Shown: positions 1 through 27,424 of the stretch, in pieces
Layout of the letters: every line of letters starts with the position of its first letter
How positions within the stretch are numbered: position 1 is the stretch's first letter
Assembly (NCBI RefSeq): GCF_947623445.1
Contig: NC_135242.1
Coordinates: 21,638,001-21,702,000, forward strand
Length of the DNA stretch: 64,000 nt
Direction: 5' to 3'
Source: Clavelina lepadiformis
Taxonomy: Eukaryota > Chordata > Ascidiacea > Aplousobranchia > Clavelinidae
Position numbers and translations under genes: made by a program
The notes under the pieces: model-generated
What the model was told of the DNA's origin: nothing
Seen by the model: only the letters and a program-made list of their open reading frames with translations
Database searches by the model: none

Positions 1-3000
1 TATAACGGCGTAGCCCGGTGAAGAAGTGATTTTAGAAAAGCACAGAATCGGATAGTATCCAACGCGACTTTTTTGCTTGACTGTAACGTTCTGCCAAGAG
101 TCTGAGGCGTTGTAATTACCGCCACAGGAATAAGATGCTAAAGTAAGAATATAATATGCTGTCAAAATTTCAATCCAAAAATTTTATCATAATGGTCAAA
201 AGAATTTCTCATTTGTTACAAAAAGATCTGTAAGAACGGAAGACAATCCAACCTGGGTGATAACTTGCTCGAAACCCGTTCCCGCTTACAGTTGAGTCTG
301 AGTGATATTTTATCGTCAGACTTCCATGCTGGGACGTCACGGGTATCTCGCTTGCTTTTGCTATCGTGTAGTATCCAAGGCTCACAGAACCATCAAGTAT
401 CTGTTTAAAAATGTAGAAACTTTAGGTTTAATTGTCAAATTTACAATAGTTTTGAATAAAATTAATCATCAGACACCCACTTCCAATTGTTCGTAAGATA
501 CATTCATTTTTATTCTGTGAAGATACAAGGACACTTGTTGGTCTGCTTGGGCTGTTATTGTCCATTGACAATCCATTTCTTCACCAAACTTTTGAAGGAT
601 TGGTTCACGCGGGTATGCGTATGTTGGCGCGTGTATCATTAATACACGATCGTTTGCCATGTGTTGGTATTTGCATACTGCGCGTTGGAAATAAAATACA
701 ATAATGCAATGACAAAACGGAAAAAAATCAAAATTACAATTACCGAAATTAATTTTTGACGTAAACTTCTTTTTTTTAAATAATTATGTTGACAAGCAGT
801 TGTTTCTGATAATTCAACTTTCTATTCAAAGTGCAGAGGGCCATGGACGATTAAAAAATCTTGATTGTAGTCCCATAACAAAAACTACGTATACACTTTA
901 TCATTAAACTTACCATTATTGCGAGTAATTCGAAAACCTTTGCTCGCTCCACTCTCATCAGTGTGGTATCGGACAAAAATATCTCTTGTGGCGGAATCAA
1001 CTTCAAAAGTTCTTGTTACATTACCAGACAGTTCGGCAAGAATGGTTGAATTTTTTAGGTAAAGCTTAAATGATTCCAATTAACATAAAAAAATTTACAA
1101 TAAACTCACGGTAGCTTTAGCAATAAAAAGCTAGTATTATAATCACACTGCATTTAGCATTAAAACGCCACCCATTAATTGCAGGTCTAATTTTATCTCA
1201 CTCAGACATCTTTCACTTAGCATTAAAGCTACACTTAAACGTTTTTACTGAAATATGATTCCTCAAAATTACAAATTTGTGTTTCCTTACCGTAACAAAA
1301 TCACAACAACTTTCGGTATCGACTTCCACTTTTATTTTCAGTCCAAACTTATATTGAGCTTCGAGATGATATACACAGTCAAATTCATGATTTATCTGAC
1401 TTGGAAAACCAGGCGAGGTTATGACTGCTTTTCGGGTTCCAAAAGTTGGCAACCAATGCTTACAGTATTCTAGAAATAAAATAAATTTTCTGTGAGCTAA
1501 GAGGCGAATGAGAAATGTAGCTTACCATAAAAGCTTTTTTGCTTAACAAACTTTTTTAACGACGCTTTAACTTTGATTGGATTATATTCGAAATAGTTGT
1601 GCTCTTGTAGATGATCTAGCCTGATAAAGTGATAACATGCAACACTACATCTCATTTCTCACCATTTGAAAGACGGGGAAATATTTCATTATTGCAGTAA
1701 AACAAAGGCTGGTTTAGTGGCCCCATGTAGTTAAGGAAAGTCGGCAAACGTCGAAGCCAACTGGGAGGCTGGCAAATATTTCCTTTCGGAGTACAGCTTC
1801 CCGGAATTGAACTTGAAAACATGAACACAAATGCTAAGGCGACAACTTCTTTTTTCTGATATGATGAATAATAGTGATATCGTCCAATAAAAAGAAACCG
1901 TGAAATTCGAGAATAATCAAGTTGATACTAATAAGTTACATAATTATACAGAATATACAGTTAAAATGCATAAATTATTGCAGAGTACATATTATGATGT
2001 AAGATGATCGAAAACCGTGAAGTAACCCAAATATTTTAAAAATACTACAGTGCTTGTTGAAAGTTACATTTAATTTTAGTTGCATACTTCCTGGTATATA
2101 GCTATTGAGTAAATGACAGACGATTCTTATGTAAAAAGAAAGTCTAAGCGCGTTTTAGAACCTGTCACACATCCAGTGATCTTCCACGAAAGCAAGTATC
2201 GAATCAAAATCAATGCTTCTTTTGTCGTCACCATTTCTTTTACGTTGGCGCTGAATACATTTCTTGTATTTTTTGTCTAAAATCTTATTTTGCTGCAAAC
2301 ACGTCTTCCGAAAAAACATTTTACCATCCTTCACTATTAAACATCAAATTATTCAACATATTTACATGCTGAGTAGAAGTCAATCAAATAAATTAGGTTG
2401 AACATAAAACTTTTACTTGTTTTTTAAAACTTGAAAACTGAAATTTACGCAAAGCGTCACAAATAAATGATCCATTATTGCAATTTTATCCTTAGGCTAT
2501 CGAAATATGAACTTATTCGAATTTATAATTTATTTTGCTAATTAACGTCGATGATTTGAAAACCAATAACCTGTTTCTTGTTGCTGCTTTATTTTTTTCC
2601 GTCTACTTTGTTTCATGCATTTAAGTGTAATCTGTAACAGAGTTGAGTTTGGTCGAAGCAATTGTTTGACGCTTTCTTTCCAACAGGTGGGGGTGTTGCG
2701 CCCAGCTGCTTTACTGAGAGAAAAAATGAAAACTGAAGTTTCAACCAAAACGAATCTCCCCAGAAAAGTTTCAACAAATTTCTAAAAATAATTTATCATA
2801 TTAATACCTCCTCTACAATACAAATTTTTATTGTCAAGAAATTTTATTTTTAAACATACAGTGCATAGCTTATGCAAAATTTATTTTCAAATTTTACTCA
2901 CCCGCAGGTTTCGTCTTCAGTTTTCGTAAACCATTCCGTGTCAAGGACCACAAAATCGACGATCGATTCCCAAGATTTATACATCTTTCCCAACTAAATA

Positions 3001-4085
3001 CAATATATTTCCAGTGTTTTTTCTAGTACGGTGTTAAATATAAAGTTTCACTTTTTAGCGTGTAGTAATAGTCAGACAAGTTTAAATCTATTAACTTACT
3101 TTTTCAAAACAGTAATTGGTTTGATTTAGTTATAGCACAACATCATAATCTTTTAATGTAACCCACATATCTACAAACATGGTGGCCAAATAGTCAAGAA
3201 ATTTTGACTTCATTTAACAAATATAGCCAGATAGAGAAAAACGTAATGTACAGTGGACTTTATTGTTACAAACCAAGAATTCGAATGAAAATTGACTATT
3301 CTTTTCCATCTGTAATGTACTACAGTAGCCTATATCTCGCTTTGTAGCAAATAAAACTGACTACAATTAAATTAATAGCAAAAGGAACGAGCCAACGTAG
3401 AAAGCTGAAGTCCATGACTGAAAATAACACGCAAACAGTTTACACTGACTCGACAGTACAACCAGTGCCCGAGCCTTCCAATGATTTAGAACAAGCCGTT
3501 ATTTTTTAAAAGCAAACTCGTTTAGTTTACCTAGTTTAGTTTTAGGCGTAATACTTTGCTAATTTACATAATACAAATTTAGCAAATTTTCTTCAAATAT
3601 GGTTGAAAAAGTTTACCTTGCTGCTCGAAAAACAGTTAACCAATTTTGGCCTTAACTTGCGAGTCCGGTAAGATATGTCCTTTCTTCTATTGCTCACATA
3701 TTGCTGAAAACGGCAAGCTGCAAACGAATGTTGTACCATAGCATATAGTTTAACATAAGTAGATTGAACCTGCAACCTATCAGCAAAGCGCTGTAGCGTC
3801 TGTTAATAACTTTTGCTATAAAGTATTTTGAACATCAGAACAGATACTTATTTCATCAAAACCGGCGATTGTGCTGATTTTTTGAAAAGGGTGATCGAAA
3901 ATGTTGTTTATTATAGCTTTACAACAATGTTTGTGGCGTTGTTTCAAAATTGTGGTGTAACTGTAAATATGCATTAACTAGAACCATACATATAGAAGAT
4001 TGCCAAGATAAGAAAACCGATAAAAAGACTTACCATGGCAAGTTGAAAGAATAAGCAATAGCACAATTGCAGCAAAAACCTTCAT
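1..4085 (-). CDS. CUB-cluster gene A: secreted multi-CUB protein with 11-Cys N-terminal module (3' end outside window)
   Basis: Exons, in gene order: 4085-4034, 3717-3617, 2993-2902, 2713-2571, 2333-2162, 1811-1663, 1469-1291, 1064-914, 677-481, 400-253 and 137-1 (incomplete). All junctions have GT/AG sites and matching phases. The start is the ATG at 4085, which opens a hydrophobic signal peptide (MKVFAAIVLLLILSTCHG). Residues ~19-236 form an unrecognised module with eleven cysteines shared with genes B and C; motifs include YKSWESIVDFVVLD, TCWKE, FVEDHWMCD and SIPGSCTPK. CUB1 (exons 7-8) keeps the adjacent cysteines of ESCCDF. CUB2 (exons 9-10) has lost them, with VSYEQLE in their place. 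CUB3 starts in exon 11 and runs off the window. A secreted, extracellular binding protein is likely from the family; no ligand can be named. The gene is divergent from gene B. Confidence 0.85.
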
Positions 4086-5265
4086 ATTGAACTTTCCCTC
4101 AGTAGTCGACTTGACTTCTGAAACAAATTTGAGTAATAAACAAACACAACCAACAAGTGGTAATATTCATGGTTAGCAATATTATAATATCACTTATGCT
4201 TCTGTATAACCTACCCTTTACATGTTACCAGCGTCGGCCTTTTTATTGGCTTCAAAGAAACGCACTTAAATTATAACCAAGCTTTCAACAAATAATTTTC
4301 GTGGCTTATATGGGTATTTTCCACATTGCAAAGTGGAACCAATTAAAAAGCTGTTGATGATGGCGATTTCTATTGGATTGGTAATCTTCGAGCCAAAATG
4401 ACCGAAATTTCCCAAGTGTCAAAAACAGTCGAACGGAAGTATCAACAGGGTGAGAAATCAATTTATTTGCTATAAATTGTCCTACTTTATTTATCGAATC
4501 ATTATTGCAAGAACTGAATTGCTGCCAACACAATGAATTATTTCCGCAATCGCTGTATACAACTCTCTATTCAAATTTGCAGGAATTCTATGCATCACCA
4601 GATCATTTACAAAGCTTGCATAAGAAATAGCCTACTTACTAGAGACTGTACTGTACTGCACTGTAAAACGTAACAATATTGACAACAATAATTTTCTCAA
4701 GAACTGGTTAAAAATGACAGCTTTTTTTGCATCCAAAAATTTTTGCGCCCTATAGTCTTAATTTAGCTGGCTTAATATCTGAAGCAAGTATTCGTACAAC
4801 CATGTCTGAATTTCTCGTAATTGCCCTGCAAAACTGTCAACCATGAACAATTTGTCGATTATGATTTCAATAATAATTTCTCTTCTTCCCTCCCTTTCGT
4901 TTGCTCATCATACAGCACAGATCTCAAAACCCACGAAGCGTGTAGTGACAGGGATAGGCGTTAAGCAATCAGATCAAACATAAGTTAGAAATCTGGAATT
5001 AACGTTAGCGAAAATTGCCTCAGAGTTGTACCCAAATTCAATGAGGTGATCAGTAAACGTTCCATAATCCATCGGATTGCTGTGTATTGTTCATTACGAC
5101 AGAGTGTTTTGAAGTAAGACTATAGGGAAGAAGTCTTACTGGTTATTTTACAGTGGCATTCGGTAGAAGTGCATTGATTATAGAAAAGTGTATGCATGTA
5201 CATGTGCTGCGAAATAATAGAGCTCATAACACTTTACACTTGCACTAAGTTGAGGGCTTTCGAAG
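4086..5265. promoter_or_regulatory. Shared spacer between divergent genes A and B
   Basis: This 1.18 kb lies between the start codons of two head-to-head paralogs, so it must hold the 5' UTRs and promoters of both. I see no convincing TATA box, repeat or ORF in it. A bidirectional promoter is an inference from layout alone. Confidence 0.5.
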
Positions 5266-8200
5266 ATGAAGGTTCTTGTCATTACCTTGCTTGCTTTAGC
5301 CTGTCTATCCGCAGTTGAAGGTAGTGTGTAGTATTTTTTTACCTTAGACAGGTTAATAGAAGATACCCTTTTTCTGGAAAAGGTGTTTAATCATATAGAT
5401 AATGTAAAAAAAATCTCTAAGAATACGGTGCCATTAATTTAAAAAAGACAGCATGACGTATAACCTGTTAATACCTTATTAATTAGGTTGCCGATTCCAG
5501 GAAGAATTGCAATCGAGACGACAACGAACGAAAACACAGAAAACGAGGTGGCTGAGACCTTACTTCGCTAAATGTCTTTCAAAGAAGGTAACTAACAAAG
5601 GCCAAGCTTTAATGTTTTTGCGATAAACAACCCTAAAAATGATTATAGAGACGTGCTTGATAGATAGCATAAATCTAGAGACATAACATGGCATTAAATA
5701 AGTTTCAATTTGAAAACCATTTATGCATTGTAACAAGTCTACGTGTACAGGCGGGTAGAATGTACAAGTCGTGGGAATCAATCGTTGATTTTGTGGTCTT
5801 GGATAGCTACTGGTTTCATTCCACAGAAGCAGATTTTTGCAGGTACAAGTTCAGTTATTCGTGAATATTTAGATATCGTTGTTAACAGTGCAGGCTTTAG
5901 ATCAATACGAGCGATGCGACCACGGGCCACGCGATGCTTAGCGCGCTTGCTAAGGCCCTGGTTGCTGAGCTTGATTTCCAACAAAAAACATACGCTGAAG
6001 AATTTTAAGGCCACATACAGGACATACAATTTGTGAAATGCAAGCTTTCTTTTAATTTTGATTTTGCCTTTTGCACATTTAGTCCATCTTATGGTAATGA
6101 CCATGCGTGTTGTTGGAAAATGAACATTGAGCGTATCTTCCGACCAGAGTCAACGATAAAACCATTAACTATCGAATGTATTGATGAATACGCATCACAC
6201 ATACAGCAGCCAACTGGTAAGCTAAATAAAATGTACCTAATTCAAAAATAGCCAGCACGTTTTATCAAAACGTTAAAACAACTTTTAACCAACTTGCTTA
6301 AACATCTTTCTCTTGCAGGCGGAAATGCCGTCGGTCCTGTCACTGAAATAAGTTGTCTTCATAGAAATACAACACTCAGGCGCCAGTATGAAGATTGCTT
6401 CACACTTTCATTGCAAGAAGAGAAAGACAGGCAGCAGTTTGAAGTAGAATCTGTAGTTGCTTTTGTGGAAGATCACTGGGCATGTGACAGGTGGGTGAAC
6501 AACCTTGTCACATTGAACTCAATTTTGTTCAAAATGAAACAGATGTTTGCAAGTTTTCGAAACAAGTTCACTTCCTTATAGATCGGTTCCTGGAAGTTGT
6601 TCTCCAAAGTTTAACTTCACGTGTCACCCCGCTTCCTGGCTTCGAAGAATGACGACCTTTACCGAGCCCAACACTCCTCTTCGTCGTATTTTGATGGATT
6701 GTAACGCAAAGGTATTCCCGGGCGCGTCTGCAGGTAAGCGACATTGGAATAGATTAGAACTTAACTATAAGAACACGCTGCAACTAAAAAAGCTTTAGAT
6801 AATAAGTCATAATAATAAAAATAATTATATTAATTACTAATATATATTATAATAATTAATAATCATTCGATTAGTTTGTATGCTTTCAAACTGCTTTGAA
6901 ATTGGCTTCAAAATTTTTAATTTATATGACGACAGATCGTTCATTATGCAAATCACGACTTTAAATCGGCCGTTTTCTGGGTGCCGTTTTCGTTTGAAAA
7001 CACCGTTCTTTTTCTACATATTTTGACGTAAACTTTTCGACGTGTTCTAAAGAGGAGTGCTGGCACGTGCTTAAAGCCAATGGAACACAAACTCATGTAA
7101 TGACATCACAAGGTTATCCTAAGCAACTTCATGACGTTGATTGCTCCTACGAATTTCAAGCCCAGCTTGGCTTTACATTGGAGATCACTGTTGAAGTGGA
7201 CATCGAAGAATGTTGTGATTTTCTTGAGGTATGGCATTAGAGATTACTGATGCTCCTTCAAAATATATTCACGGATTGTTCAGAAAAAAAAATGCCCATT
7301 CATGCATAAATCACACATAACACACACTCTTTTCTGAAACTTCGCGTAAGGGTGTTTAACATGCACTTCTGTGCTTATGACAGGTTACTAGCGAAAACGA
7401 TAAACTTATTGCAAAACTTTCGGGCAATGTGAAAAGAACGTTCAGGAGTTACCCCGGTGAAAGCTTCATCTACATGGAATATCATACTGATGAGAACATC
7501 GGAGGTAAAGGATTCCGAGCAAGCTGGAGAAATGGTGAGGATGTTTATTCAACTCAGTGTGCAGGAAATTTTACTACTGCTGCTGTCAGTTTAAGAATGA
7601 AAGCAAGAATAGTATAATATGTTCATAATATACGGTTTTATATTGTTTAACAGTTTGCGAGTATAAACGTGTGGCTTCTGCACGCCATTACAGTCCAAAG
7701 TTGTATCCGCCTTTCTACGGGTACGCATCTCAAGACACACTGCCAACGTTCGACAAAGAACTGGAATGCACATGGGTTGTAACTGCACCACCTGGGGAAC
7801 AAGTGCTTCTTGTGTTTGAAGAGATTTACATGAATACATGCTGCGACAAGCTAACAGTAAGAATGGATGTTGCTTTGTCGTGACAATGCGTGTGATGTCT
7901 TCATTTCATTTCCAGATACACGACGGACTCATCGACCTGGGTAGTTTTGCATTGACAAACGCAAGAGGAGTTCCCATACGGTCTCAGCACGGGATGCTGA
8001 CATTGCGGTACCAAACCAATTCTACCGTTTACGGAAACGGGTTTCTAGCAAACTATGGAACAGGTTTGAACAAGATCTGGTTCTCTATACTCAAAACAGT
8101 ATAGCTGTGTATAAATCGATTGGCTCGGAAAAATTTTCTGTTTGTTGTACATCTAAAATACACTTCGCATTCATAACCCGCTCGTGTTTTTCCTGCAAAC

Positions 8201-11025
8201 TGACTTAAAAATTAACTTATTTCGAAACACCTGTTTTTAGCAACACGACGAGCCCCATGTGGGAATGCACGCAATGCATCTGACGCATGGCAGCATTTTT
8301 CGACGTGTAAACTCACGAAGAAAGGTAACAAAGCTTTACGGTGTTTCTGGCAAATAACTGCAAGTGAAGGCTACGCGGTAGTAGTCAACATATCGTCCAT
8401 TGTCACGGCAAAACCATCTGTCCACCGACAAAAAGTGCAGGTAAAATTAAGATTATCTATAAGTAGTTACCGTACGTTAGATTTTCGGTTTCTAAGTGTT
8501 AAAACTTTAAGGCCAGCATTACTCATGCTACGATGTTACTTAACTTTGTCTGCAAACAAAATCTATGCTTTTTTCTTATGTTTATATGGAAATAATTATG
8601 TAATAAATTTTTGCGATTTCGGTGGACTTGCTTTAGATCAATTTGTTAAATTCTGAAAGAGGTTCTTGTGTAAACTTCTTGCAAACTGATTGCTAATTTT
8701 AACCAGGTCTTTGATGGTTTATCCGCCCTACAAAGCTTTTTTAACGAAAGTCACATGTACGTGTCCAGCAAAAGCAATCTAGCCATTCAACTTTTATCCC
8801 ATGAGTGGCGAACATTTGGATTAAGAGCCTCATACAGACAACGTGTGTGGTATCAGATTGACGCGGCAATAACATATAATAAATACGTCACCAAATATCT
8901 GACGTTGCCGTCAACGTCGATGAACTTTCATCTTTTTCAGTTCCTTGCAACGTCACTTACAATCTCACCGGTTCCGCTTCGATGAAGCTTGCCTCGCCTG
9001 ACTACGAAGGTTTTCCTTTCAATATTTACCAACGATGCACTTACACTTTGCACGCCCAACCTGGCAAGAAGATACGAATGACTTTGAAAACGTTTACTAA
9101 AACAGGATTTGTGAATGTGAAGAAATTATAAACAAATTTCATGATATAATCCTTGCATTTTACTAATTGTTGCAGATATTTGGAGTAATGGAGATATACC
9201 TTTATTAGAATAATTTCTAGTACACCCGCAATACGAAATATATTTACAGTGATCTCTCTCCAATCAATCCGACTTTTGCTTCTTTTGTTAGATTAAAAGT
9301 GGTCACGTCAACTTTGGCCGCGTCACTGGTCTCCAGAAAAGCATACACTTGACTTCGAGCGGAAGCACGTTGCAACTGCATTACACTGCAGCCAGGGCAA
9401 AGACTGCAAAAACAAGAGGATTTTTCGCTACATACCGACAATGTAAGAATTTTACTTAAAACAAGTATTTTTAAGCCGCTGACCGCTTTGAACCCCGTGT
9501 ATTCTGCAGTCACGCCAAAGTGTGGGACAGTATTGATTGCCAATTCTTCTTCTCAAGTTTTCTTATCTCCTGGTTATCCGAACATGGAAAACACCAACTG
9601 TGAATGGATAATCACCGCAGCCACTAAGATGAATGTGATGCTTAATCTTGTTGATTTCGAAATGGATACGACCAGCGCCTTATTTGTATGATATTTTTAT
9701 TTAAATTGCCTGTACATTTTATACGCTTACATAATGTTAAAAAAACTCAGTTTGATTATTAAAAAGACAGTCAGCTAATTCAGATATTCTAGTTATGAGG
9801 ATTTGAAGTAAAGTGTGTAACGTTGGACCTTAAACTTGTGAGTTGTTACTAACACACCATCAAAACATTACAGGTTTTTGATCAGATGCTCAGTTTGGGA
9901 AAATACACTGGGTCAGGAAGTAACGTAACACTCGTATCATCAGCAGACGTTTTGAGATTACGATTTAGAAATAAAGGTTCTGCACGTGGTCACAGAAGTT
10001 TTCTCGCAACGTTCAACGAAGGTTGGATATTTTATAGCACATGCCGAAACGATCTAACGTCAATGAAACGGTTAACTAAATTTTGATATTGTTATAAGTT
10101 GCCAACGCTGGATGGAACGCTCGCCTAGTGCCTGGGAACATGAGCGGGTGGTCTTATATGCGCTGCTCATCGAAACATTGTAGCGGTGAACAAGACAACT
10201 TTTGGAATTTTCAGGCGGGAAAATATTACAAACACGTTGAGCTAATTGTCACACAAGCAAGCTTACAAACTTCAGATAGCTTCTTGCAGGTAAAATGCGT
10301 TTGGAAATAAAGGTAACATCCTAAGGTTTATTAAGACTCGCTAAATTTGGTAACGTAAATATTTTTGACGATTCGAGATTATGGATGATACCAAAATTGT
10401 GGCAAAATTAAACGGAAATCATAGTTTTCCACAAACAATCAAGTCTTCCACTTCCGTTCTTCGTGTGTACTTTCATTCGATTTTTGGTTTTCCAAACAAC
10501 ACCTTCACAGCAGAAGTGAAAACGAGTAAGTGATATTGTTTACGTGACTTTTGATCGATTTTTACACACTACTAGTTTTCATCAAGTTTACTTTATTTTT
10601 TAGTTTGTGTAGAAGACTACGCGGTCGGACCAAGCACGCAGCTAATCTACTTTCCCGACATAAACTCAAATAAGTTAATTGTCGACTGCAAGTATAATTT
10701 TATCACAGAAACCGGATCTAGAATTGAACTGACAGTAACGGATAAAACAAAAATAAGGAACGACATCGTGAAAGTAAAAAGTTAAACTTTAAATTCGATT
10801 AATTTGAGTTAATTCCGTTGACACCACTTTGTTGATTTTACGTAGATCTTAGAAGGCAATGAGACGTTGTATAGTCTGGAAGGATACTACCAACACAGTC
10901 TCTCTGACCAAACAAGCTACTACAACGCAACAGTACGGTCGACCCGAAACAAACTGACATTGCATCGATTGACTTTTATCCGTTCACCTTCTGAAGGCTT
11001 TGTAGCTCAGTACAAAAATGTTTAA
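5266..11025 (+). CDS. CUB-cluster gene B: secreted protein, 11-Cys N-terminal module plus seven CUB modules (1019 aa)
   Basis: Twenty exons: 5266-5320, 5487-5587, 5751-5842, 6083-6216, 6319-6490, 6582-6733, 7053-7228, 7384-7534, 7654-7856, 7916-8063, 8241-8440, 8707-8842, 8941-9116, 9292-9442, 9510-9685, 9874-10021, 10099-10289, 10378-10525, 10604-10773, 10846-11025. They join in one frame of 1020 codons. The signal peptide is residues 1-18 (MKVLVITLLALACLSAVEG). The N-terminal Cys module spans ~19-235; its second exon holds a dibasic stretch (SRRQR) that could be a processing site. CUB boundaries fall near 236, 345, 462, 574, 683, 791 and 904. Each CUB is two exons split by a phase 0 intron and bounded by phase 1 introns. 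CUB1 (EECCDFLE) and CUB2 (TCCDKLT) keep adjacent cysteines; CUB3-7 are strongly diverged. No transmembrane segment or GPI signal is obvious, so the protein is probably secreted. Confidence 0.88.
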
Positions 11026-11757
11026 AATTTGAATCTTGTGATTTTGTTGGGCGAGCAACAACGAACTAGAACCACGTTTCAGATTATAAGCGATATGAAA
11101 TAACCTACTAATGGAAAACTTTTCGGAACTTGCAGAAGAGTATGTATGCGCAAGCAGATGAAACAACATAAGTTTGCAATAATATAGACCAATGACTTGT
11201 TGGACATGTGATTAAAAATCAATGTGTACTTGTTTTTGTTTGCCTTGTTATTATTTGCTTTAGCATCACTTGAATACAGCAGTTGTATTCATTTTTATAC
11301 AGAGACTGTGTTTAAGTATAGGCCTACAGCAGAGACGTTACACATCACTGTGTAAAAGATTAATTGATATTTTGCCCATCACTGGTATGAAAGTTGTTAT
11401 TACAGGCTAATTCTATTGATGCGTTTTAGGTTATAGCAAACTAGTCGTGAGCCAAAACTGCATTTTGCCACGAAAGTTTAAAGGTTGAAACGATCGTTTC
11501 AACTTACCACATATGATGTAAGCGTATTTTAGGAAGCAATAGGCGGGTGAACAAGAAGTGTTGCAACTTACTTTAAAAACGTTTCCGGATTTTTGGAAAC
11601 TCCCTACTATTACAAAAGTTTGCAAATGAAAACCAATTGCATTGCCTATAACAATAAAGCAAAAAGTGCGTGGTGAAGCTTTGACGGTATACTTTATAGC
11701 AAATGCTCTTCAAATCAGTTGTTTGGAAAATTTCTAAATAAAAAAGATCCATTGAAA
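11026..11757. other. Spacer between genes B and C
   Basis: This stretch of about 730 bp follows the stop codon of gene B and precedes the start of gene C. It is AT-rich, and I see no exon, repeat or RNA gene in it. It presumably holds the 3' UTR of B and the promoter of C. Confidence 0.4.
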
Positions 11758-14700
11758 ATGTTGTTTGTCACTTTAATAATTCCTTTTGTTTTTGCTTCAG
11801 TGAATGGTAAGTTGTGATGATATTTAGGGAATGCTTTTGGTGGTTGAGGAAATGATTGGTTTAGACTCTTTTTTAATTGCTTTAAATGTGTAGGTTAAAA
11901 TGAGATATAGGCTAGATACATAAGCTAACGTCAGAACTTACAATGTTTTTGTTTCTCTTAGCTTGCCATTATCAACTGCAGCCCAAGCTGATGAAGGCGC
12001 ATGATTACATGTCTGAGTGCCTATCTAACAAAGTAAGACTAAATAGTTGCCTAATACCTACTTTAAACGTAAGTTTTGTTTCAGGACTTTTTATAACTTG
12101 TATTGAAGACGAAAGGATCAGAAATCAAAAGTGGCTCTTTCACCGTAAGTAGGCTACTGTAATAGGTTATTTAGCCAGTTGTTAAAAATAAGCGGTTAGG
12201 TTAGGAGAATGGGAATGCAAAAATTTGGTGTTAGCTATTTAGACTTTAATTGAAGTTAAATTTAGATTAGATCGTAGATTTTCGTCATCAGGTTTAGGTT
12301 ACTAAGTTAGGCTACTACAGGCAAGCTACAGTTAAGAAGAAACTGTGAAAAAATAGCTTCAAACGTGCAATTACGGTGAAACAGTGAAAATCTTTAACAT
12401 AATAATGTTTTCATGAAAGACAAAGATGGCCACACAATTGCTTACAATATGTCCAAACAATTTCAGACAGGATACCCTGTCAAGGCTTGGAGTTCCATTT
12501 TCAAGTTTGTCGTGCTGGATACAAAATGGTTTCAAACAACTTTAGAAAATGTTTGCGCGTAAGTTATGTAATTATTTCTAATAATTAAATTTCATGTCAA
12601 TTAACAGTTTTTGTAACTGCAGAAATAGGCAAAGAAAGGTTATGTAGTCAGCATTTTTGTGTGTAACTTGATCAGAATCCAATTGAAATTTAAAGTGTGT
12701 GTCAAATTTTTGAAAAAGATGAAAGCTATTTGCTTAAAATAGATTTTTGATTTTAATTTTACAGTGAAAGCAAATATCGTTTTACACGTAGTTGTTGGAA
12801 ATCGCATATTAAAGAGATTTTTAGAACCAATTCGTCGCTTTATCCTATAACGTTGCAATGTATGGATGGATACAAGACTAAAGCAACCCAACCTACCGGT
12901 AAGCTCATTTTTTTAGGTCGACAAGGCAAACTCTTAGTCTGCTTTCCGGTTCGATATAATTCAAAGAAATACGTAGAAAATAACCCATTCTTACTTCCGG
13001 AAAAAAAACGCATATTGCCGCATATTAATATTAAATTTTTATTCGCTTGATCAAAAGTTTCAGAACAATCCATTAACGGATGGCCTAATGAGGATGAAAT
13101 GTGTCTAAAACAAAATGCAACAGCATACGAAATGTATATAAACTGTTTCAATAGTTCATTGAGAAATGCCGGTTTCGAAAATGTCGTGGAGTTGCCGCCG
13201 ATATTGTGGTTTGTTCAAAATCACTGGGTTTGTGACAAGTAAGCTTTATACGCATTTTGTACATCAAAGTACCGCGTAGCAACAGCAAGACCTAAAACAA
13301 CAGCTCATAAGGCTTTGCAACAAGATGTGTTGAAAAAGTTAAGGAACTATTACAAAGTAAATTAAAGAAGTATTTTGATGATTTTGTGCGCATCTGGCTT
13401 TCGCATTGTACAGGATAAGTCTATACACACGTTATGCGTATCTGGTCTAAGACTAAGTTCAACGTTGCAGAACGATTCCAGGGAGTTGTTCACCGAAGAT
13501 ACCAGGAACCTGCCCGATCTCAAAATGGCCTCGTTTTTTACAGGACATAACAAAACCATCATCCTTGTTAAAAATGTTGATCAGTGGATGTAACGAAGAA
13601 CTTTTTAACCGGCCTTCAGGCGGTAAGTTAGTTACTTATTTTTCAATTTGCAATTGCTTTTCACTATTTGAACTCGAACGATGGCTTTACTTGCCTCATT
13701 TGATTATTATTTAAGGTTTATAAAACATACTCTTGCATGTTGGTGTCTGACAACTACTTGATCTGCCAGATGAGTTTGATACTCAGTTCATAGGCAAAAT
13801 CATTTTGCTTTGTTGATTGTTGTCAAAATTTGAACAGGTTGCAAACAACAACGGCTGGTAGAAAAATGGAAATGGTATTCCATAAGATCACCCGGTTACC
13901 CTAATGTAATGGGAGAAAATGATTATGACTGCACGTATGCAATCAAGCCCAAGCGTTTCTTTAAACTGGAAATGAAAATCATCGTTGACACCGAAAAATG
14001 CTGTGATTTTGTTACAGTATGATTCTTGATTGCTTCCATAAATGTTATAAGGAGAAATCTGGGTTAAGTTGGTTTAACGTATTATTTATTCTCTCATAGA
14101 TCTTTTTTCCAAACTCGACCATCCTGGCAAAGTTGTCCGGAAAAGTAAAACGAACGTTTCTTCTAGATAGCCATGAAAACAGTGTCAATGTCAATTTCCA
14201 TACAGATGAAAGTGTTACCAGTAAAGGTTTCGTACTTCGCTATAGAAAAGGTATAAAAATACATTACCACAATCGTGTTACTCTTTTGATTTCTATAAAA
14301 ACTCGTGTTAAATGCGTTACATCTATGAGCTGCCAAGAAAACATGTTCAGCCTAACAGGAAACTTAAAAAACAGTCACACTGAGCGTACAATAAGATACC
14401 CTGTGCAGTGTGTAGGTTCAATCTCAAGAGCACCACGTCAATGCAGAAAACATTTCCACCAACATTCAAACAACTCAGCAGTGGTACAGTATTTGGCGAA
14501 GAAATAAAATGTATTTGGACTATCAAAGCGCCTTCAGGCGAACAAGTTTTTTTGCGTTTTGACAAAATTCATCTTGAAAACGCAGACCGTATGGAGGTAA
14601 GAACACTTTAACAGCAAGAAAAGGTAAGAGCTCACCAGCATGCATAACCTATAAATTATATAACTTCAAGAAAAAATCAGCAATGTTCAAATTCTTTCAT

Positions 14701-17700
14701 AAGTTACTCCATCGGTTTCATATTTTTTCAGCAAGCAATGACATCACTAAGAAACAAACTGAAAATTCCTAATAGAAAAGATTGAAGTAACAATTTTCTG
14801 TTGCTCCAAATATAGGTATTTGATGGACCTGTGAGATTAAGGATGTTGGAAGAAACAGACTCCAGAAAAGACTCAATTAAATCTCAAAACGGAATGTTGA
14901 TAATTCACTACCAGAGCAATTCAACGAAAATAGGAAACGGCTTTCACGCTTCCTTCGCAACAGGTAATGTGAAACAGTTGGGGCTCGGGACAATACAATA
15001 CTGAACCTGAACTTCGTATCAGTATCACATACAAATCTAATGTATAAGACTCATTCTATGTAGCCTATATAAGCGTTAACAATCTAAGGAACTGTAGACT
15101 ATAAAAAATGAAAAGTTCTTACAGCATGAAGTGATTGGCAAATGAACTGACTTTTGCTTAGTAGTCTACATCACTGCATAAAAAAGAAACATTTGGCCTA
15201 TTACTGTGGATTAAATAAGATATCAATCAATCGCGCTATCATGCTTTAGCTAACAGTTGTGGCGGCAGTTTCGCTGCTAACAACAACTGGCAGGAAATTG
15301 TCGGAGAAGCTTTCCACGTTGGCGGCAATAACATTCTTCCATGCTGGTGGAATATCACCGCTTCACCTGGTTACGCAATCTTGCTTAAAATGAATTCCAA
15401 GATCCGAAAATATGGCAAATCGAGGAATGGCCAACGAATTGAGGTAAAGAACAAGTTTGATAATGCAGCGATTTAACTGGAGAAAATTTGTAAGATCAAT
15501 AAGATTAGCACTAGGCCTAAAAAAATTTTTATTAAATGAAATGATTTGCATTTTTTGTTTTTCCTACCTCCTTTATACTGGACTATAGACAAACTTATTT
15601 GGTGTGGCGTAGTGCAGAAACTTTTATCCTTCGACTGAAGGAAGTTGTTGCACGACTTAATCTTTGTAATAATTTCTCACTGCTCGAGCCCCGATTACCG
15701 AACTTGTTTGCGTGCATTTTCTTATAGCTGTCTATTTTTCTTTGAAAGACAGCAAATTTCTTGTTTTAACAATATGTTTGCAATTTCATTTAGGTTTTTG
15801 AAAACCGAAACAGGGTTTACAGTGTTTACGATAAAAACTTTTACTTTGCTTCAAATGGAAATCAACTGTTAATTCACCAGAATTACAGTAGAAATGGATC
15901 GGTTGGATTTGTCGTATCCTTTAAGCAAGGTAAATTTTTCAATAACTAGTCTGAAAAGGTACATTAAAATACAATACGAATGATCAGGAGACAAACTATA
16001 TGTTTTATTCTTCTCAGAGATGTGTAATGTTACAATATTGTTGGCTAACTCTGTCAGAAGAACTGTTCAATTTGCCTACTTTCCGTCGATAAATAGACGT
16101 CACATTTGTACATACACCGTTCGTTCTACACCGGAAAGGAAGATTCATTTGACGTTAAAAACATATGAGCTAAAAAGCAACTACTTAGAGGTGACAATAT
16201 TTCAGGAAATGAACCGTATTGTCCAAACTTTAGGCAGTTTTAACAAATTCGTACTGTATGCCAAAACATCGAAAATGCAATAGGTCTACTTATTTAGGTA
16301 TTTAGTGGCAACATCAGTCTTGGACGCGCTGATCTCACAGGTCCACCATATATACATCGCTTGACTTCTATCGACAACGAAATTCAACTGCGATATGTCA
16401 TCCAAGGGAGCATGTTTCTCACAGAGTTTAACCAATGTAAGTTTGACATTTAGCAAGAATATGTCACATCTATTCTCTATGAGCTGTATTCTGTCATGTG
16501 CTTTTGTCGCCGCATGTAAAAATATAATGAGACGGACAATTTTAAGAGAAACTCGACTCAATACTTGTGTAATTAAAAATTGAATCCTCTTAATTTAGCG
16601 TACGTATTTTAACGAAAACAACCAAACGCCACCATTAACGATGAACTTTCCCTGTTTACTTTAACACAAAATACAACTAGGCCTATAAAGCATTTAATCA
16701 AACACGTAAGCTAACTTATAGGCCTATTACTGTGCACATAAGCTTAAGTTGTATAATACCTGCTATACGCTAGTGTTTAAATAGCATTTCATTTCAAACA
16801 ATACTGTACCGTTACTGTAAATAATCTTTAACCAAAAACAACAACTGCAGTTACTCCAAATTGTGGCTCCAGTCTGATTGCCAACGCGAATTATCAAGAT
16901 ATTTTTTCACCGGGAAATCCTTCCAGGCACATTGTAAGATGCGGATGTGAATGGATAATAACAGCGTCTCCAGGCAAGCAGATTGTTCTAACCATCTTTG
17001 ACTCGCAAGGAACTCAAGATTCAAGTTTCATTCGAGTAAGATCAAACATTTATAGAGTAGTTCTGTACAAAAAAGGCAGTGCATTATTACTACATAATTG
17101 TAAATTTGCCGCGTTACTTTCTCCAACTCATGCAGGTGTATGATAAACTGTTACCTCTGGGGACGTACGCTACACCGCGATTTCTAGACGTTACCCTTGT
17201 ATCGTCAACTAACCTAGTAAGAATACAATATCGTCAGAAGGCTGATGGAGAATTCAAAGGATTTCAGGCAACATACAAAGAAAGTGAATAAATTTTAATC
17301 AAATCTAACCTTTATGAGACGTTTCACTTATCGTGATGCTTAACGACGTCAATTGAGTTCAGCATACCTTTTCTTATGCAGCAATCAATATGGGATGGAA
17401 TGATGTTAAAGCTTTTGGTGGAACGATTTCGACCGAAAAAATGTTTATGAACACTTCCATGTGTCTTAGTAACAAGCATCACTTTTGGAACATTTACACA
17501 TCTCGCGATTACAGGATTAAATTTACAATCGAAAGTGTTCGATTTTCAACCGCAAACAGCTTCCTACAGGTTGTAACCGGTTGTAGCCTATAGCCTATTT
17601 CAAAAGTGATGCCTAATAACTAGAGCAAAAGAACAAACGGCAAGTTAAAACTAACACATTATGTTTATAGGCCTAACAAGTTCACATATTATAAGCTTAC

Positions 17701-18406
17701 TTTTAGATTCAGGATAGCAGTAGTAGAATAGGATGGTTACATCAAAACTCCAGTGTTCCTCGAAACTTTTTAACATCTACACATACACTACGTGTTTGTT
17801 ATTACACGGATGATTGTAGTTCACCTGAAAAAGAACATTTCGTCGCGACTATTAAGCAAGGTTATATTTCAACTAATGTTCTATATGTACATGTTGATGT
17901 TCGTACGTTTTTCCATTAAAACTGTGTTTATTTGACGCAGTTTGCCAAAAGGACATCAACATTTTTGGGTCAGGCAGACGTGATAAAGGGATTTTCACAA
18001 AAATGTTCGACAAAAATGAAACAACCGATTGTCATTACAATTTCGTCACCGCCTTTGGATCGAAAATACAGTTGACTTTATATAATATCTCGATACGTGA
18101 TGGTTACATTAACGTAAGTTTTAATTCATGCCGTAACAAATACCGATAAACTTAATACTAGTTCTTTTATAGAAAACGCAATGAAAACAACCACGTGCAT
18201 TTTAGGTAACTGCCGGCAACCAAACTCTCTATCACTACACGGGCTCCTCTAGTGGTTCGCCAACAACTGCAACGTTGATATCTCCACGAAATAAGATGAC
18301 TCTGCATTATCACGCTCCTATAAAATCCAGCTCGAATGGATTTCGGATGAGATACGAAAAAGCGAGAATGCCGAACATGATGCAGCTAGTTAAACGTGTT
18401 GATTAA
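11758..18406 (+). CDS. CUB-cluster gene C: secreted paralog of gene B, seven CUB modules (1009 aa)
   Basis: Twenty exons: 11758-11806, 11962-12032, 12467-12558, 12765-12898, 13064-13238, 13471-13622, 13838-14016, 14100-14250, 14409-14596, 14816-14963, 15250-15443, 15794-15929, 16018-16190, 16298-16436, 16851-17035, 17136-17283, 17382-17569, 17707-17860, 17941-18113, 18206-18406. All phases match gene B. Exons 3, 4, 6, 8, 10, 12 and 16 have exactly B's lengths. The signal peptide is MLFVTLIIPFVFASVNG. The N-terminal module (~18-224) repeats the A/B motifs (IFKFVVLDTKWF, SCWKS, FVQNHWVCD, IPGSCSPK). CUB1 keeps EKCCDF; CUB2 has lost the paired cysteines (ENADRME). Later CUBs are degenerate. Exon 2 is 30 nt shorter than in A and B and lacks their basic run. 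Introns carry a SINE-like copy (15624-15730) and a dispersed repeat (12173-12398). Confidence 0.87.
12173..12398 (+). repeat. Dispersed repeat, copy 1 (intron of gene C)
   Basis: This ~225 bp stretch matches 54675-54877 closely in the same orientation. Shared blocks include GCGGTTAGGTTAGGAGAATG near the start and TTTAGGTTA/CAACTATGTTA-type sequence further in. It lies in the intron between exons 2 and 3 of gene C. The larger context at 54.5-55.0 kb suggests a mobile element of unknown class. Confidence 0.7.
15624..15730 (-). repeat. tRNA-derived SINE-like repeat, copy 1 (intron of gene C)
   Basis: It is homologous to copies at 50330-50440, 50653-50765 and 55436-55545, all in the same orientation. 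On the minus strand the consensus reads TAGCTCGGTAACCGGAGC, which resembles a tRNA D-arm/A box. A hairpin (CGATGA/TCATCG) and GGTTAAGTC, a degenerate B box, follow. This copy is among the more diverged. Confidence 0.6.
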
Positions 18407-22433: not shown

Positions 22434-25400
22434 ATGGCAGTGACGGTTTTGTTTTCGGCAGTATTTATTTCGCTGCTAATTGTTCAGCGTATAAACGGAC
22501 AAGGTAAGCAATTCAAGAATAGCAATAGAGTTTGTATAATTTTAGAAATTTTTCTTTGGACAGTGAAAGTAACGAGAAAATAGACAAGATACAATTATTT
22601 TTTACTATTCAAAGCATGTGAGGAAAACCTGACGGCGACGCTGAACGAGCAAGTGCTTACGTCACCAAACTATCCAAACAGGCATCCAAATAATCTCAAT
22701 TGCGTTTGGACAATCAAAGTGCCAGTTAATTCCTCCGCTCAAGTTTTGATAACCTTGACAGATCTTCACACCGAACAATGCTGCGACCATTTAGAGGTGC
22801 ACGAGTTGTTTGTAAATTATATGCAATTAGACGTTCCGCTGACTCGACTTAAGCCAAACTATAAAATTATATGACGTTATGAAACAAAACTCCTGTTTCA
22901 TAGATATACGATGGTGACACGCTGATTGCAGACAGATTTAAGGGAGAACGTACCGGTGAATATCCAATGGTGTCTTCGACTGGAATGTTGCGAGTCCAGT
23001 TTCGAAGCGACGGCAGCGTGGCTTACACAGGCTTTCGGGCTACTTTTCGAACAGGTGGTACCAAAGAATTGCCGAGAATTTCGAGTTAAAAAAGCTGTGT
23101 TTATGATTACATAAATTCATTGAGACGGCTTTAACGATGTCACGCTGTTTATCATGGCGATTCGGACGGTCGTGGAAATACTTCATTGTTTATAAACTGT
23201 CTTTCAAGAATTAAGTTTGTATAGTTGTCATGTATTTATCGCCAAACAGATATAAGCGGTCAGCAGCTTTCACTTTGATGTTTAGCGACAAGAGGCCCCA
23301 AGGTTGCAAATGCACATACTCTATATTTTACTTCATGAATTAGCAGAACCGCAGTCGAAAAAGTCGTTGATTTAATTTAATGATTGGTGAACTTCTCCTT
23401 TCGTTCACAGGACAATTTTTGCTTCGTTATAAACAACAAAACCAGGCATTTTAGAAACTTTACGATTAATTTTTGCAAATGCACTGTTCTCAAAGATACT
23501 CGATTGAAAAAGATATAACTTATTTATGACTAAGTTTATATTTTTAACTGCTATTTTATGACTGTTTTTATTTTTAGCGTTAAACTGCGGGGGAATACTC
23601 AACGCGAGCGACACAGTAAGCCACTTCTCCACGCCGTTTTACCCCGATCCTCACCCACACAACATGGACTGCTTTTGGGTTTTGAAAGCATCACCTAAAA
23701 AAAAGGTTGATCTGACGATTGCAGAAGGAAAAACAGACGAATGCTGTGATTATCTTGACGTAAGTCACTACAAGATAGGCTACGTATTTCGTTACATAAA
23801 TTAAGTACAATTTAAACGAAGTCATTCCACGTGGGCTTGATAGACATGACGCAATTCTACACAACAGTAGCCTGCTACTTATGGCAAACAACAATTTAAA
23901 ACCAGCGAACAATAGAAAATTCCGCTGGATATGCAGAAGTGCTGCAATGCATTTGCAACTACAGTATAAGCTTTTTGTTACCTTTGTAATGGCATGAAGA
24001 ATTCCTTTTTATTTCAACTGAAAAAAAGCCATTATGAACTGCTGAACTAGATCTACCAGGGAACAAAGTTGCTGGAGAGATTGAAGGGGACCTTTTCAAC
24101 ACCAAAAGTATATTCCGAACATAAGTTATTTGTCTACTTCCATTCCAACAGCAATACGGCCAGAGACGGATTTAGGGCGTTTTACAAAGAATGTAAGAAT
24201 CTTGAATGGCCGCGATTAATTATATAAATATTTTCGTTTTCGTTAACTTCGTCTAATAGTATTCTTATACCGTGATTTAACATAAAGCAACAGCTAACAT
24301 ATAACAACACTGTCAATTTTCGGTTTCCAGTTTCATGTGGTGGAGAATATGACATTATGGATGAAGCAACGAACGTAATGACCTCGCCCAACTATCCCAA
24401 CAACACTGAACATAACCTCAACTGCACATACACTTTTAAAGCACAGCCGGGATTCAGAATTGAACTTACTATGGAAGTGGACACAGAAGCTTGTTGTGAC
24501 TACATTGAGGTTAGTTAGTAATAGTAACTTACATGTTGCACTAGGTTCTACGATAATTAACCGTGTGAAATTGACCGCGAACAAACTAACCGGGGACAAC
24601 CGAGTGTGACGTAAATTGACCTAGAACCAACTGACCGGAATCAAAATTGACAGGGAGGTAAATTGACCGTGAAAGTGCTGAATTATTGTGTTTAAGTTGA
24701 TGGTAGTATATTAGTTGGAAGAACATGGTTAGCAAGTAGGTCACGGTTCACAAATGATATAAATCATTATCACTGAAATCATATAATTTGAATAAACAAC
24801 AATGCTAATTTGGACTACTTATTTCATACAATTGTACGGTTAAAATCCAGAGCGGTTGATTTGTGTCGCCGGTCAGTTGATCAAGACCAATTGTCGCCGG
24901 TTAATTTGTTCACAGTTAATTGACGTGATACCGTTGCACTACATAACTGAAAAACTGCGTATGTGGCCTATGGCTATATACGCACTGCATGCATAATACC
25001 AGTATACTATACATGCATTGCAAGCAGGATAGCAAAGGTAAATAGGCAAGTGCTATAAATTAGCGATTACAAATGATTCTTAGGTGTACGACGGCAGAGA
25101 AAAGATTGGACGTTTGGCCGGCAAGATTCCCCACACAAACGTGGCATCAACTGGACAATTTCTAACACTAGTCTATATTTCAGACTCCACACTTCCGAGC
25201 AATGGTTTTCGGACGAGATACAGGCAATGTAAATATAAAGTTGTTGAAATGCATCTGCACAAAACACTACCTAAACAGCCATTAACAGACAAAACATAAA
25301 ACTGTAACATCATTAACCTCAATCATAACCAATTTAGGAATACCTACACATAAACATGAAATGTGTATCAACAGTTTTACCTGGATGCGGCTTTACAAAG

Positions 25401-27424
25401 GTGGCAACAAACGATTACCAGAGTTTCAACTCACCGGGTTATCCAAGACAGTATTTAAGCAACATGAAATGTGACTGGGTATTTAGCGCATACGCAGACC
25501 AGCAGATCGTTCTAACTATCACTGAACTTGAAACAGAAGAATGCTGTGACTTTGTCCAGGTATGGCACCGAACCTTTTTATGTTTGATAACAAAGTTGTT
25601 ACACGTAAACATGTCATACAATTTAAGAGCTGTTTAGGTTGGCTTATTCAAAGTTTTACACGTTTTGTAGATTTTTGATGGATTGAAAGTGATTGGAAAA
25701 TTAAGTGGAACTCTTTCATCACCAATAACCCTGGTTTCAAATGGCAGGAATTTAAGAGTTCGATTATCCACTGATTCAGCAAATGAAGCTAAAGGATTTA
25801 AAGCAAAATTTAAACTAGGTAATCTGAAGCAAATCAGGCATAATGATATTCTGTCAAGTACATTTAACTTCAAAAGTATCTGCAGTGTATATATACTGTA
25901 CATCATACCATGAGAAAGTGTGGTAAACGGTGTTTAAATCTTAATTGGAAAAATTGATTTTGTAAAGCATTGCATATGTAAATTAATAAGTATAGCACTA
26001 ATGAATGTTAGTGTTGTCAGTACCATATTTAGTTCTATGTGATATTAGTCAAAAAGTACTATCCAAATAAATCTATGCCACAAACTAAATCATTAGGTGA
26101 AAACTGCGGAAGCGAAAAAAGCGCAACAATTCGAAGTACAAACACCCTATCTACACCAAACTACCCTGTCGATCATGCTGATAATCTGGATTGCTTGTGG
26201 ACAGTCAAAGCACCAGATGGTTTACAAGTTCTGATTAACATAACAGAAGGCGAAACAGAAACTTGCTGTGACTACATACAGGTAAACATAGAAATTTGAG
26301 CAACGATGTCCACAAGTGGAACTACTTTTGGCTACTTCCAAACAAAGTTAAAAGTGGTTACAAATGAAAGGTCGCCAAACTAAACTCAAAAGCTACTGTA
26401 TCCTGTGAAACGGCAAATCACCTGCATAATTCCCAAAATATTCACAAACAATTTCATTAATACATTTTACACAATAGGTTTGCAAAAGACTGAGGCTAAG
26501 TACAGCTTCGTAAAAACCATTTAATAAAAACTTAATTTACACTGCTATTAGATTATGGATGGGCTGAAACCACTTGGAAATGTTCGAGGCCAAATAAATA
26601 CCGTTCAGTCTTTCACAAGTAGCAGTAATGTTGCAAGGGTTTATTTTCATTCCGATGACAGTGGCACAAGAGATGGTTTTCGAGCAAGTTATGCTGCAGG
26701 TATTCAAACTGCATTAGTTTTTTTACAATCAAAATTGCAATAAAAACAAAAGAAAGCGATAACCTTGGCAAGTTTAAAGGCTTTGCATGTATATCATCAC
26801 TTAAACATTTTTTATTTATTTTGCATAACTTATTGCTTGTTCGATTACTCATATTTTTTCATGACTTAGTGTGCATCAAGTACATCAACGTCAACAGCAC
26901 AATGCCTACAAGCTTTTCAAGTCCCAACTATCCTGGCCATTCCCCGCACAACACACGATGTAATTACTATTTCACTTCCGCGCCTGGAACAGCAATTGAA
27001 CTAGCATTCTCTGAAATTGACACTGAAAACTGTTGTGACTATTTGGAGGTAATCAAATATAAACAACAAAATGAAAAGCTTGTAAAAACAACTTCTGATC
27101 CACAACTGCATTGACAGGTATAGTTTCACCACAAAATAATTTCGGACAAGCTCGGATGCTGAGAACTGAGCGACAAGGATTCGTTGCCTTGTTTAAGTCA
27201 TGCATAAATTTTCCTCATTCTGAAGAGAAAATATTCTGATATCATACCAAGATAATGTATCATCTCAATTTGTTTAGGTGTACAAAGATGACACAACTCA
27301 ACGTTACAAAGGAAGTCCAACAGCGCCAACCATCCAGTCAACAAGCAACACAATCAGACTTTATTATTACACCGATTCGAGTGTTGGCAGCAAGGGGTTC
27401 CAACTCATGTACCGTCAAATCTAA
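22434..27424 (+). CDS. CUB-cluster gene D: secreted six-CUB protein (680 aa)
   Basis: Thirteen exons join in one frame of 681 codons: 22434-22503, 22615-22796, 22904-23054, 23578-23759, 24051-24192, 24331-24509, 25084-25228, 25375-25559, 25671-25818, 26097-26281, 26552-26699, 26870-27048, 27278-27424. The signal peptide is about residues 1-22 (MAVTVLFSAVFISLLIVQ). Six CUB modules start near 24, 135, 243, 351, 462 and 573. All six keep SPNYP- or SPGYP-like first strands and a paired-cysteine acidic motif: EQCCDHLE, DECCDYLD, EACCDYIE, EECCDFVQ, ETCCDYIQ, ENCCDYLE. Acidic residues just before the CC suit calcium-binding CUBs by family knowledge. It has no N-terminal Cys module, no protease domain and no transmembrane segment, so it is probably a secreted adhesion or scaffold protein. 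It shares exon architecture per CUB with A-C. Confidence 0.9.
24552..24930. mobile_element. MITE-like inverted-repeat element in gene D intron
   Basis: The left part (24552-24660) and the right part (24850-24930) are inverted copies. For example, AACAAACTAACCGGGGACAA on the left matches AACAAATTAACCGGCGACAA read from the right on the minus strand. The element is full of short TTGACCG/CGGTCAA units. It fits wholly in the intron between exons 6 and 7. There is no ORF, so it is probably a non-autonomous DNA element. Confidence 0.6.

What the first reader, a model, noticed from the sequence alone, without database searches (positions are those of the whole stretch)
1..18406. Unrecognised 11-cysteine N-terminal module shared by three clustered CUB proteins
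Genes A, B and C each place a ~200-residue module, encoded by exons 1-6, before their CUB arrays. Eleven cysteines line up in all three; the contexts are AC/GC at the start, then CWK, HW.CD and PGSC.PK. I cannot match it to Kunitz, sushi, EGF, fibrinogen, SRCR or another known Cys-rich fold. It may be a lineage-specific domain that defines a new secreted family.
Basis: partly seen in the sequence, partly recalled or inferred. Interest (0 to 1): 0.8.

Follow-up and report, generated by a model that had tools for sequence, protein, structure and literature searches.

The report
Duplicated cysteine-rich domain in sea squirt
Three neighbouring sea-squirt genes start with an undescribed cysteine-rich protein domain that is really two copies of one repeat, and the same domain heads dozens of other secreted proteins in this genome, which makes it a sizeable unnamed protein family of unknown job.

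Summary
Genes A, B and C each carry, between signal peptide and CUB array, a ~210-residue module on exons 2-6 with identical intron phases and eleven aligned cysteines. No credible Pfam, NCBIfam or PDB-sequence match was found; weak AlphaFold models are helical, with no PDB fold match, which is inconclusive. Chromosome lengths match the tunicate Clavelina lepadiformis.

(1) The module is an internal duplication of a ~100-residue repeat (score 41 against at most 19 in 200 shuffles). (2) It is a large family: 20 module copies in a 150-kb cluster, CUB exons following in 17, plus at least 18 divergent loci on six chromosomes; thrombospondin type-1 repeats were found in nine of these. (3) In the non-CUB copies a furin-type motif precedes repeat 1 in 9 of 9, and repeat 2 in 6 of 10 scored.

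Best reading: a shuffled, disulphide-stabilised helical double domain heading secreted matrix or recognition proteins, a cleavable proprotein in the TSR branch and intact in the CUB branch. Function is inferred. Occurrence in other animals could not be tested.

The parts
4034..4085 (-). gene A exon 1: start codon and signal peptide
   Evidence: hydrophobic start by inspection
3617..3717 (-). gene A exon 2: repeat 1, C1-C2
2902..2993 (-). gene A exon 3: repeat 1, W.SIVDF stretch to C3
2571..2713 (-). gene A exon 4: repeat 1, C4WK to C5
2162..2333 (-). gene A exon 5: repeat 2, C6 to C8 (HWMCD)
1663..1811 (-). gene A exon 6: repeat 2, PGSC.PK (C9) to C11
1..1469 (-). gene A CUB array, first part; continues outside the window on the left
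   Evidence: tblastn with gene B CUB exons; exon 7 start read
5266..5320 (+). gene B exon 1: signal peptide
5487..5587 (+). gene B exon 2: repeat 1, C1-C2
5751..5842 (+). gene B exon 3: repeat 1 to C3
6083..6216 (+). gene B exon 4: repeat 1, C4-C5
6319..6490 (+). gene B exon 5: repeat 2, C6-C8
6582..6733 (+). gene B exon 6: repeat 2, C9-C11
7053..11025 (+). gene B exons 7-20: seven CUB-like domains, stop at 11025
   Evidence: PF00431 E=5.9e-43, 5 stretches
11758..11806 (+). gene C exon 1: signal peptide
11962..12032 (+). gene C exon 2: repeat 1, C1-C2 (short form)
12467..12558 (+). gene C exon 3: repeat 1 to C3
12765..12898 (+). gene C exon 4: repeat 1, C4-C5
13064..13238 (+). gene C exon 5: repeat 2, C6-C8
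13471..13622 (+). gene C exon 6: repeat 2, C9-C11
13838..18406 (+). gene C CUB array, stop at 18406 (exon 12 of the array not modelled)

Best explanation
The module is a tandem pair of one ~100-residue, probably mainly alpha-helical, disulphide-stabilised repeat. It is an undescribed extracellular domain that was shuffled as a phase-1 exon block and heads two branches of secreted proteins in Clavelina lepadiformis: a CUB-array branch (the tandem cluster holding genes A, B and C) and a thrombospondin-type-1 branch scattered over several chromosomes. Most likely working: the CUB or TSR array acts as an adhesive stalk in extracellular matrix or an egg or epithelial coat, and the double repeat at the tip is the binding or assembly head. 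In the TSR branch a furin-type site before each repeat would cut the precursor in the secretory pathway into an N-terminal piece, repeat 1, and repeat 2 plus TSRs. The CUB branch mostly lacks these sites and has three more cysteines in repeat 2, so the head stays in one piece. Shown by computation: gene structure, duplication, family extent, the two architectures, presence of the cleavage motifs. Inferred: helical fold, disulphide pairing, cleavage, adhesive or recognition role.
For: Same exons and phases in A, B, C. With these phases required, 13 of 20 cluster copies gave all of exons 2-6, and 31 of 32 TSR-branch exons sought had splice sites in phase (the miss was a wrong search string of mine). 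Internal duplication: hhalign repeat 1 against repeat 2, probability 92.6, score 41.3; best of 100 column shuffles 17.7, of 100 cysteine-fixed shuffles 18.7, reversed 9.5; both repeats begin at a phase-1 boundary and hold a phase-2 intron. TSP_1 over the Pfam cut-off after the module in the 9 loci whose downstream exons were scanned; CUB exons after it in 17 of 20 cluster copies. Tree splits 13 CUB-branch from 7 TSR-branch modules at 100/99. Motif R-X-[KR]-R between C1 and C2 in 9 of 9 non-CUB copies (shuffle mean 0.48 of 9, maximum 4) against 3 of 13 CUB-branch; before repeat 2 in 6 of 10 against 0 of 13 (copies are related, so not independent). AlphaFold of repeat 2 gave helices with block pLDDT 77-87 in its true exons.
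Against: No transcript, protein or expression data. Both AlphaFold models are weak overall (mean pLDDT 53.5 and 54.3) and contain translated intron stretches. In a helical-periodicity test repeat 2 gave p=0.03 but repeat 1 only p=0.14. With CUB-branch sequences alone the duplication signal was weak (probability 12%, P=0.0024); it became strong only with TSR-branch sequences added. The motif before repeat 2 is missing in L064, L066 and, in strict form, L085/L086 (KKKR). Cysteines are not kept in every copy: C3 is lost at 21614 kb and C11 at 21580 and 21631 kb. Three young CUB-branch pairs have dN/dS 0.85-1.14, compatible with relaxed constraint. Nothing here shows what the head binds.
Confidence: 0.6

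Rival explanations
1. A diverged member of a known cysteine-rich helical fold (such as saposin-like, GFR-alpha/GAS1-like or DUF19-like; names recalled) that sequence HMMs no longer recognise.
For: Such folds lose sequence similarity fast (general knowledge); no HMM-HMM library was available; the AlphaFold pieces are helical.
Against: Among 11 members scanned the only Pfam hit at E<=1 is a potexvirus coat model at 0.17; other divergent modules gave only sub-threshold hits at 0.07-0.1; profile searches of PDB sequences give nothing better than E=0.43; Foldseek with the repeat-2 model found one chance match at E=7.7. The fold result is weak because the model is weak, and the repeat-1 model was not compared.
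Confidence: 0.3
2. The two halves are not homologous; the similarity reflects convergent cysteine and tryptophan spacing in helical hairpins.
For: Cysteine counts differ (4 plus C1 against 6 in the CUB branch); repeat 1 is split by one more intron (exons 2-3 against exon 5).
Against: Score 41.3 against at most 18.7 in 100 shuffles that keep the cysteine columns fixed; collinear alignment over 94 columns; exons 2 and 3 read as one open frame in the C9 and C6 members, matching the exon plan of repeat 2; a furin-type motif before both repeats in several TSR-branch copies.
Confidence: 0.08
3. The CUB cluster is an egg-coat or allorecognition locus in which the duplicated head is the variable, self-marking part.
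For: 20 module copies in tandem on both strands; three young pairs with dN/dS of 0.85-1.14; CUB and TSR repeats make up sea urchin EBR1, the egg bindin receptor (PMC9265791, passages seen).
Against: dN/dS is 0.19-0.54 in all other pairs that gave a value, the duplicates may partly be unmerged haplotypes, there are no polymorphism or expression data, and the self-sterility genes described for Ciona are s/v-Themis (PMC9265791, passages).
Confidence: 0.12
4. Gene-model artefact: an upstream unrelated gene fused to CUB genes by the reader.
For: No transcripts were examined.
Against: The module directly precedes CUB exons in 17 of 20 copies on both strands, phases match throughout, and module exons of diverged copies are under purifying selection.
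Confidence: 0.03

Closest known systems
CUB-domain array proteins (Pfam PF00431)
   Same: Genes A, B, C carry CUB-like arrays; Pfam CUB E=5.9e-43 in gene B
   Different: The N-terminal double repeat is not a CUB and has no credible Pfam match
Thrombospondin type-1 repeat proteins (Pfam PF00090)
   Same: Nine divergent paralogous loci carry TSP_1 after the module
   Different: The head domain has no Pfam match; no other named domain was reported over its cut-off in the stretches scanned, apart from further TSP1-type models
Sea urchin EBR1 egg bindin receptor (PMC9265791, passages)
   Same: Large mosaic of CUB and TSR repeats
   Different: EBR1 is described there as an ADAMTS-family protein with both repeat types; here gene B has CUB only and the nine other loci show TSR, and the head is the undescribed double repeat
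Ascidian sperm Tast proteins (astacin plus TSR; PMC11673157, abstract start in listing)
   Same: Tunicate TSR proteins
   Different: Those have an astacin metalloprotease domain; none was reported in the stretches scanned here

Membership tests
CUB domain proteins | match to Pfam CUB over the curated cut-off | tested here: met
   gene B 146 bits against cut-off 21.4, 5 stretches
CUB domain proteins | N-terminal module is itself a CUB | tested here: not met
   no match in residues 20-235 of B
Thrombospondin type-1 repeat proteins | TSP_1 over the cut-off downstream of the module | tested here: met
   9 of the 9 TSR-branch loci whose downstream exons were scanned, out of 18 non-CUB loci; not in gene B
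Any named Pfam domain (for the module) | HMM match at a credible E-value | tested here: not met
   11 members scanned; one hit, E=0.17, to a plant-virus coat model
Any solved protein (for the module) | sequence or profile match in PDB | tested here: not met
   best E 0.43
Any solved fold (for the module) | structural match of a confident model | tested here: inconclusive
Furin-processed proproteins | R-X-[KR]-R motif at a conserved place | tested here: met
   non-CUB copies: 9 of 9 before repeat 1, 6 of 10 before repeat 2; CUB copies: 3 of 13 and 0 of 13
Furin-processed proproteins | actual cleavage | not testable with these tools
   needs protein
EBR1-type egg coat receptors | CUB and TSR repeats in one protein, ADAMTS-type protease domain | tested here: not met
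   gene B: CUB only, no TSP_1, no protease in the Pfam scan
EBR1-type egg coat receptors | egg coat location, sperm binding | not testable with these tools
   no expression data
Lineage-specific (tunicate) domain | absent outside tunicates | not testable with these tools
   no animal proteome searchable; bacteria and archaea scan with one peptide pattern: 5 pattern hits, none confirmed

The most novel reading that the evidence does not exclude
The double repeat is a new family of secreted helical, disulphide-bonded mini-proteins. In the TSR branch the precursor is cut by furin-like proteases before each repeat, releasing repeat 1 (four cysteines, able to close on themselves) as a free signal, while the N-terminal piece with C1 stays bonded to repeat 2 on the TSR stalk. 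The CUB branch lost the cuts and turned the same pair into a fixed tip of a fast-duplicating recognition array, with the odd cysteine C1 free for dimer formation.
Probability: 0.13. Interest if true: 0.85.

Novelty: new variant of a known kind. Interest (0 to 1): 0.5.

Why it matters
[quoted passage not shown] An unnamed extracellular domain with at least 38 copies in one genome (some of them broken), matched by nothing credible in the profile and structure libraries searched here and shared by CUB and TSR stalks, would be a clear case of domain invention and shuffling. It would supply a concrete list of candidate coat, matrix or recognition proteins. Domain libraries would gain a repeat that can be tested directly in other tunicates and in deuterostomes.

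Tried and rejected
Known Pfam or NCBIfam domain: none credible. PDB by sequence or profile: none. Prokaryotic origin: none confirmed. First repeat comparison on CUB-branch sequences only was weak. A first placing of minus-strand stretches was wrong and was redone. Alignment A2 misplaced exon 6 pieces onto exon 5, and A8 and A9 misplaced other pieces; only A5 and A10 were folded. A ShK-like cysteine stretch in L083 was suspected by eye but has no Pfam match. Papers: eight searches gave no description of this module in their listings; passages of PMC9265791, PMC10884593 and PMC12373286 were read, nothing else beyond listings.
Full report
Where it is. The window is G000:C3:21638001-21702000 of a 209-Mb animal genome in 95 contigs. 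Contig lengths C1-C6 and C9 (28.78, 26.53, 25.73, 25.07, 24.62, 20.77 and 15.73 Mb) match Table 2 of the Clavelina lepadiformis genome note to about 0.01 Mb (28.79, 26.54, 25.74, 25.07, 24.62, 20.77 and 15.73 Mb; PMC10884593, passages). That note gives 210.1 Mb in 102 scaffolds, so the copy held here is not identical to it, but the window is very probably chromosome 3 of that tunicate.

The observation. Genes A (minus), B and C (plus) each read as a signal-peptide exon followed by five module exons with start phases 1, 0, 2, 1, 2 and a phase-1 exit towards the first CUB exon. Gene B was modelled to its stop codon: 20 exons, about 1,020 residues, seven CUB-like exon pairs. Pfam CUB was found at E=5.9e-43 with five stretches, and nothing credible in the module. 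Gene A continues past the left edge of the window; exon 12 of gene C was not modelled.

Reality of the coding exons. A search of the whole genome with the B and C modules returned 88 and 76 exon-level matches; all those below E=0.001 lie on chromosome 3 between 21.50 and 21.66 Mb. An exon finder that required the phases found 20 modules there, 11 on plus and 9 on minus. Thirteen were complete for exons 2-6, and these 13 keep the eleven cysteines (B and its duplicate have a twelfth). The 7 left out of that count are: 21547, 21577, 21614 and 21628 kb, where exon 4 was not chained but is visible; 21600 kb, the duplicate of C, whose exon 3 has an in-frame TGA; and 21580 and 21631 kb. Against the pattern, the 21614 copy has alanine in place of C3, and the 21580 and 21631 copies have serine in place of C11. 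CUB exons follow in 17 of 20; none follows at 21580 and 21631, and at 21558 kb too little downstream sequence was held. dN/dS is 0.21-0.38 between diverged copies that gave a value and 0.19-1.14 in nine young pairs; the remaining pairs are saturated for dS or have none.

The module is two repeats. Exons 2-4 hold C1-C5 and exons 5-6 hold C6-C11. Both halves read roughly as ...Y..C(L/F)...(W/F).S(I/V)V.F...W/H...C...W....(R)..S.L.....C (A6), both start at a phase-1 intron, and both hold a phase-2 intron. Profile comparison of the halves gave probability 12% (P=0.0024) with CUB-branch sequences alone, 89.6% (P=1.9e-6, 94 columns) with divergent paralogues added, and 92.6%, score 41.3, on match columns. 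The best of 100 column shuffles scored 17.7, the best of 100 shuffles with cysteine columns fixed 18.7, and the reversed profile 9.5. In the members on C9 and C6 exons 2 and 3 form one open frame, so there repeat 1 has the same two-exon plan as repeat 2.

A wider family with another stalk. Weak hits outside the cluster proved real when read: C4:19.66 Mb and C5:20.02 Mb. Further queries reached C2:24.126-24.169 Mb (8 exon-6 places), C2:9.22 Mb, C1:26.65 Mb, C4:7.14 Mb, C6:5.03 Mb, C9:2.67 Mb (two copies) and C2:0.17 Mb, with C3:19.997 Mb uncertain and not read. With the two C4:19.66 loci that makes at least 18 non-CUB loci beside the 20 cluster copies; the search tool states that its counts are lower bounds. 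For eight of these loci I sought 32 exons with the same phases required, and 31 had fitting splice sites; the miss came from a wrong search string. Pfam TSP_1 passes its cut-off after the module in the 9 loci whose downstream exons were scanned: L064, L066, L079, L081, L083-L087. For L080 only 0.4 kb after exon 6 was held and no TSR was seen by eye; L088 and L089 were not scanned beyond the module; L065 showed one exon only; the rest were not fetched. A tree of 20 modules separates 13 CUB-branch from 7 TSR-branch rows at 100/99 (long branches flagged).

Cleavage motifs and cysteine parity. R-X-[KR]-R lies between C1 and C2 in 9 of 9 non-CUB copies with exon 2 read (shuffle mean 0.48, maximum 4 of 9) and in 3 of 13 CUB-branch copies. 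In the exon-5 stretch before C7 it is present in 6 of 10 non-CUB copies scored and 0 of 13 CUB-branch copies (in four of these only the part before C6 was scored); L085 and L086 have KKKR there, L064 and L066 nothing, and L089 and L087 were not scored. Several of these copies are close relatives, so the counts are not independent. Four complete TSR-branch modules (L079, L080, L081, L085) have eight cysteines, 1+4+3 by segment; CUB-branch ones have 1+4+6 (for counts; segment split by reading A7). If each CUB-branch repeat closes its own bonds, C1 is the odd one. That is inference.

How it may work. From the anatomy (signal peptide, many cysteines, CUB or TSR stalk, no membrane segment in gene B by inspection) the products are secreted multidomain proteins. 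CUB and TSR arrays are commonly adhesive or scaffolding (general knowledge); EBR1 of sea urchin eggs is built of both (PMC9265791, passages). I therefore take the double repeat as the binding or assembly head. The TSR branch appears to be made as a proprotein cut before each repeat, the CUB branch as an intact head. No step of this function is shown.

Verdict. Novelty is rated as a new variant of a known kind (mosaic secreted proteins with a new head domain), because the kind of protein is familiar even if the domain is not, and because no other animal proteome could be searched.

Noticed in passing
window 1-18406 against G000:C3:21588164-21603170: The A/B/C block has a second copy about 50 kb to the left, 97.7% identical over 8.1 kb and 97.2% over 3.8 kb: a recent tandem duplication or an unmerged haplotype.
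   Followed up: partly
G000:C3:21600512-21600625 (L038 region): The duplicate of gene C has an in-frame TGA in module exon 3, so that copy is probably inactive.
   Followed up: partly
G000:C2:24126597 and 24150059, 24131003 and 24154465: Exon places repeat at an offset of exactly 23,462 bases, another tandem duplication inside the TSR-branch cluster.
   Followed up: no
window 22584-27114 (+): A fourth CUB-array gene follows, with several CCDY(L/I)EV half-CUB exons (CUB match at 24276-24518); no module exon was hit there.
   Followed up: partly
L083:1951-2208: A short cysteine-rich stretch lies between module exon 6 and the TSP_1 exon; it has no Pfam match.
   Followed up: partly
window 29721-30635 (+): Two adjoining long open frames without Pfam match at E<=0.01 look by eye like a mobile-element protein.
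   Followed up: no
gene B, CUB exons (window 7053-11025): Pfam reports matches to nematode-type CUB models (CUB_M02D8_5_3rd, CUB_2) in gene B as well as plain CUB.
   Followed up: no
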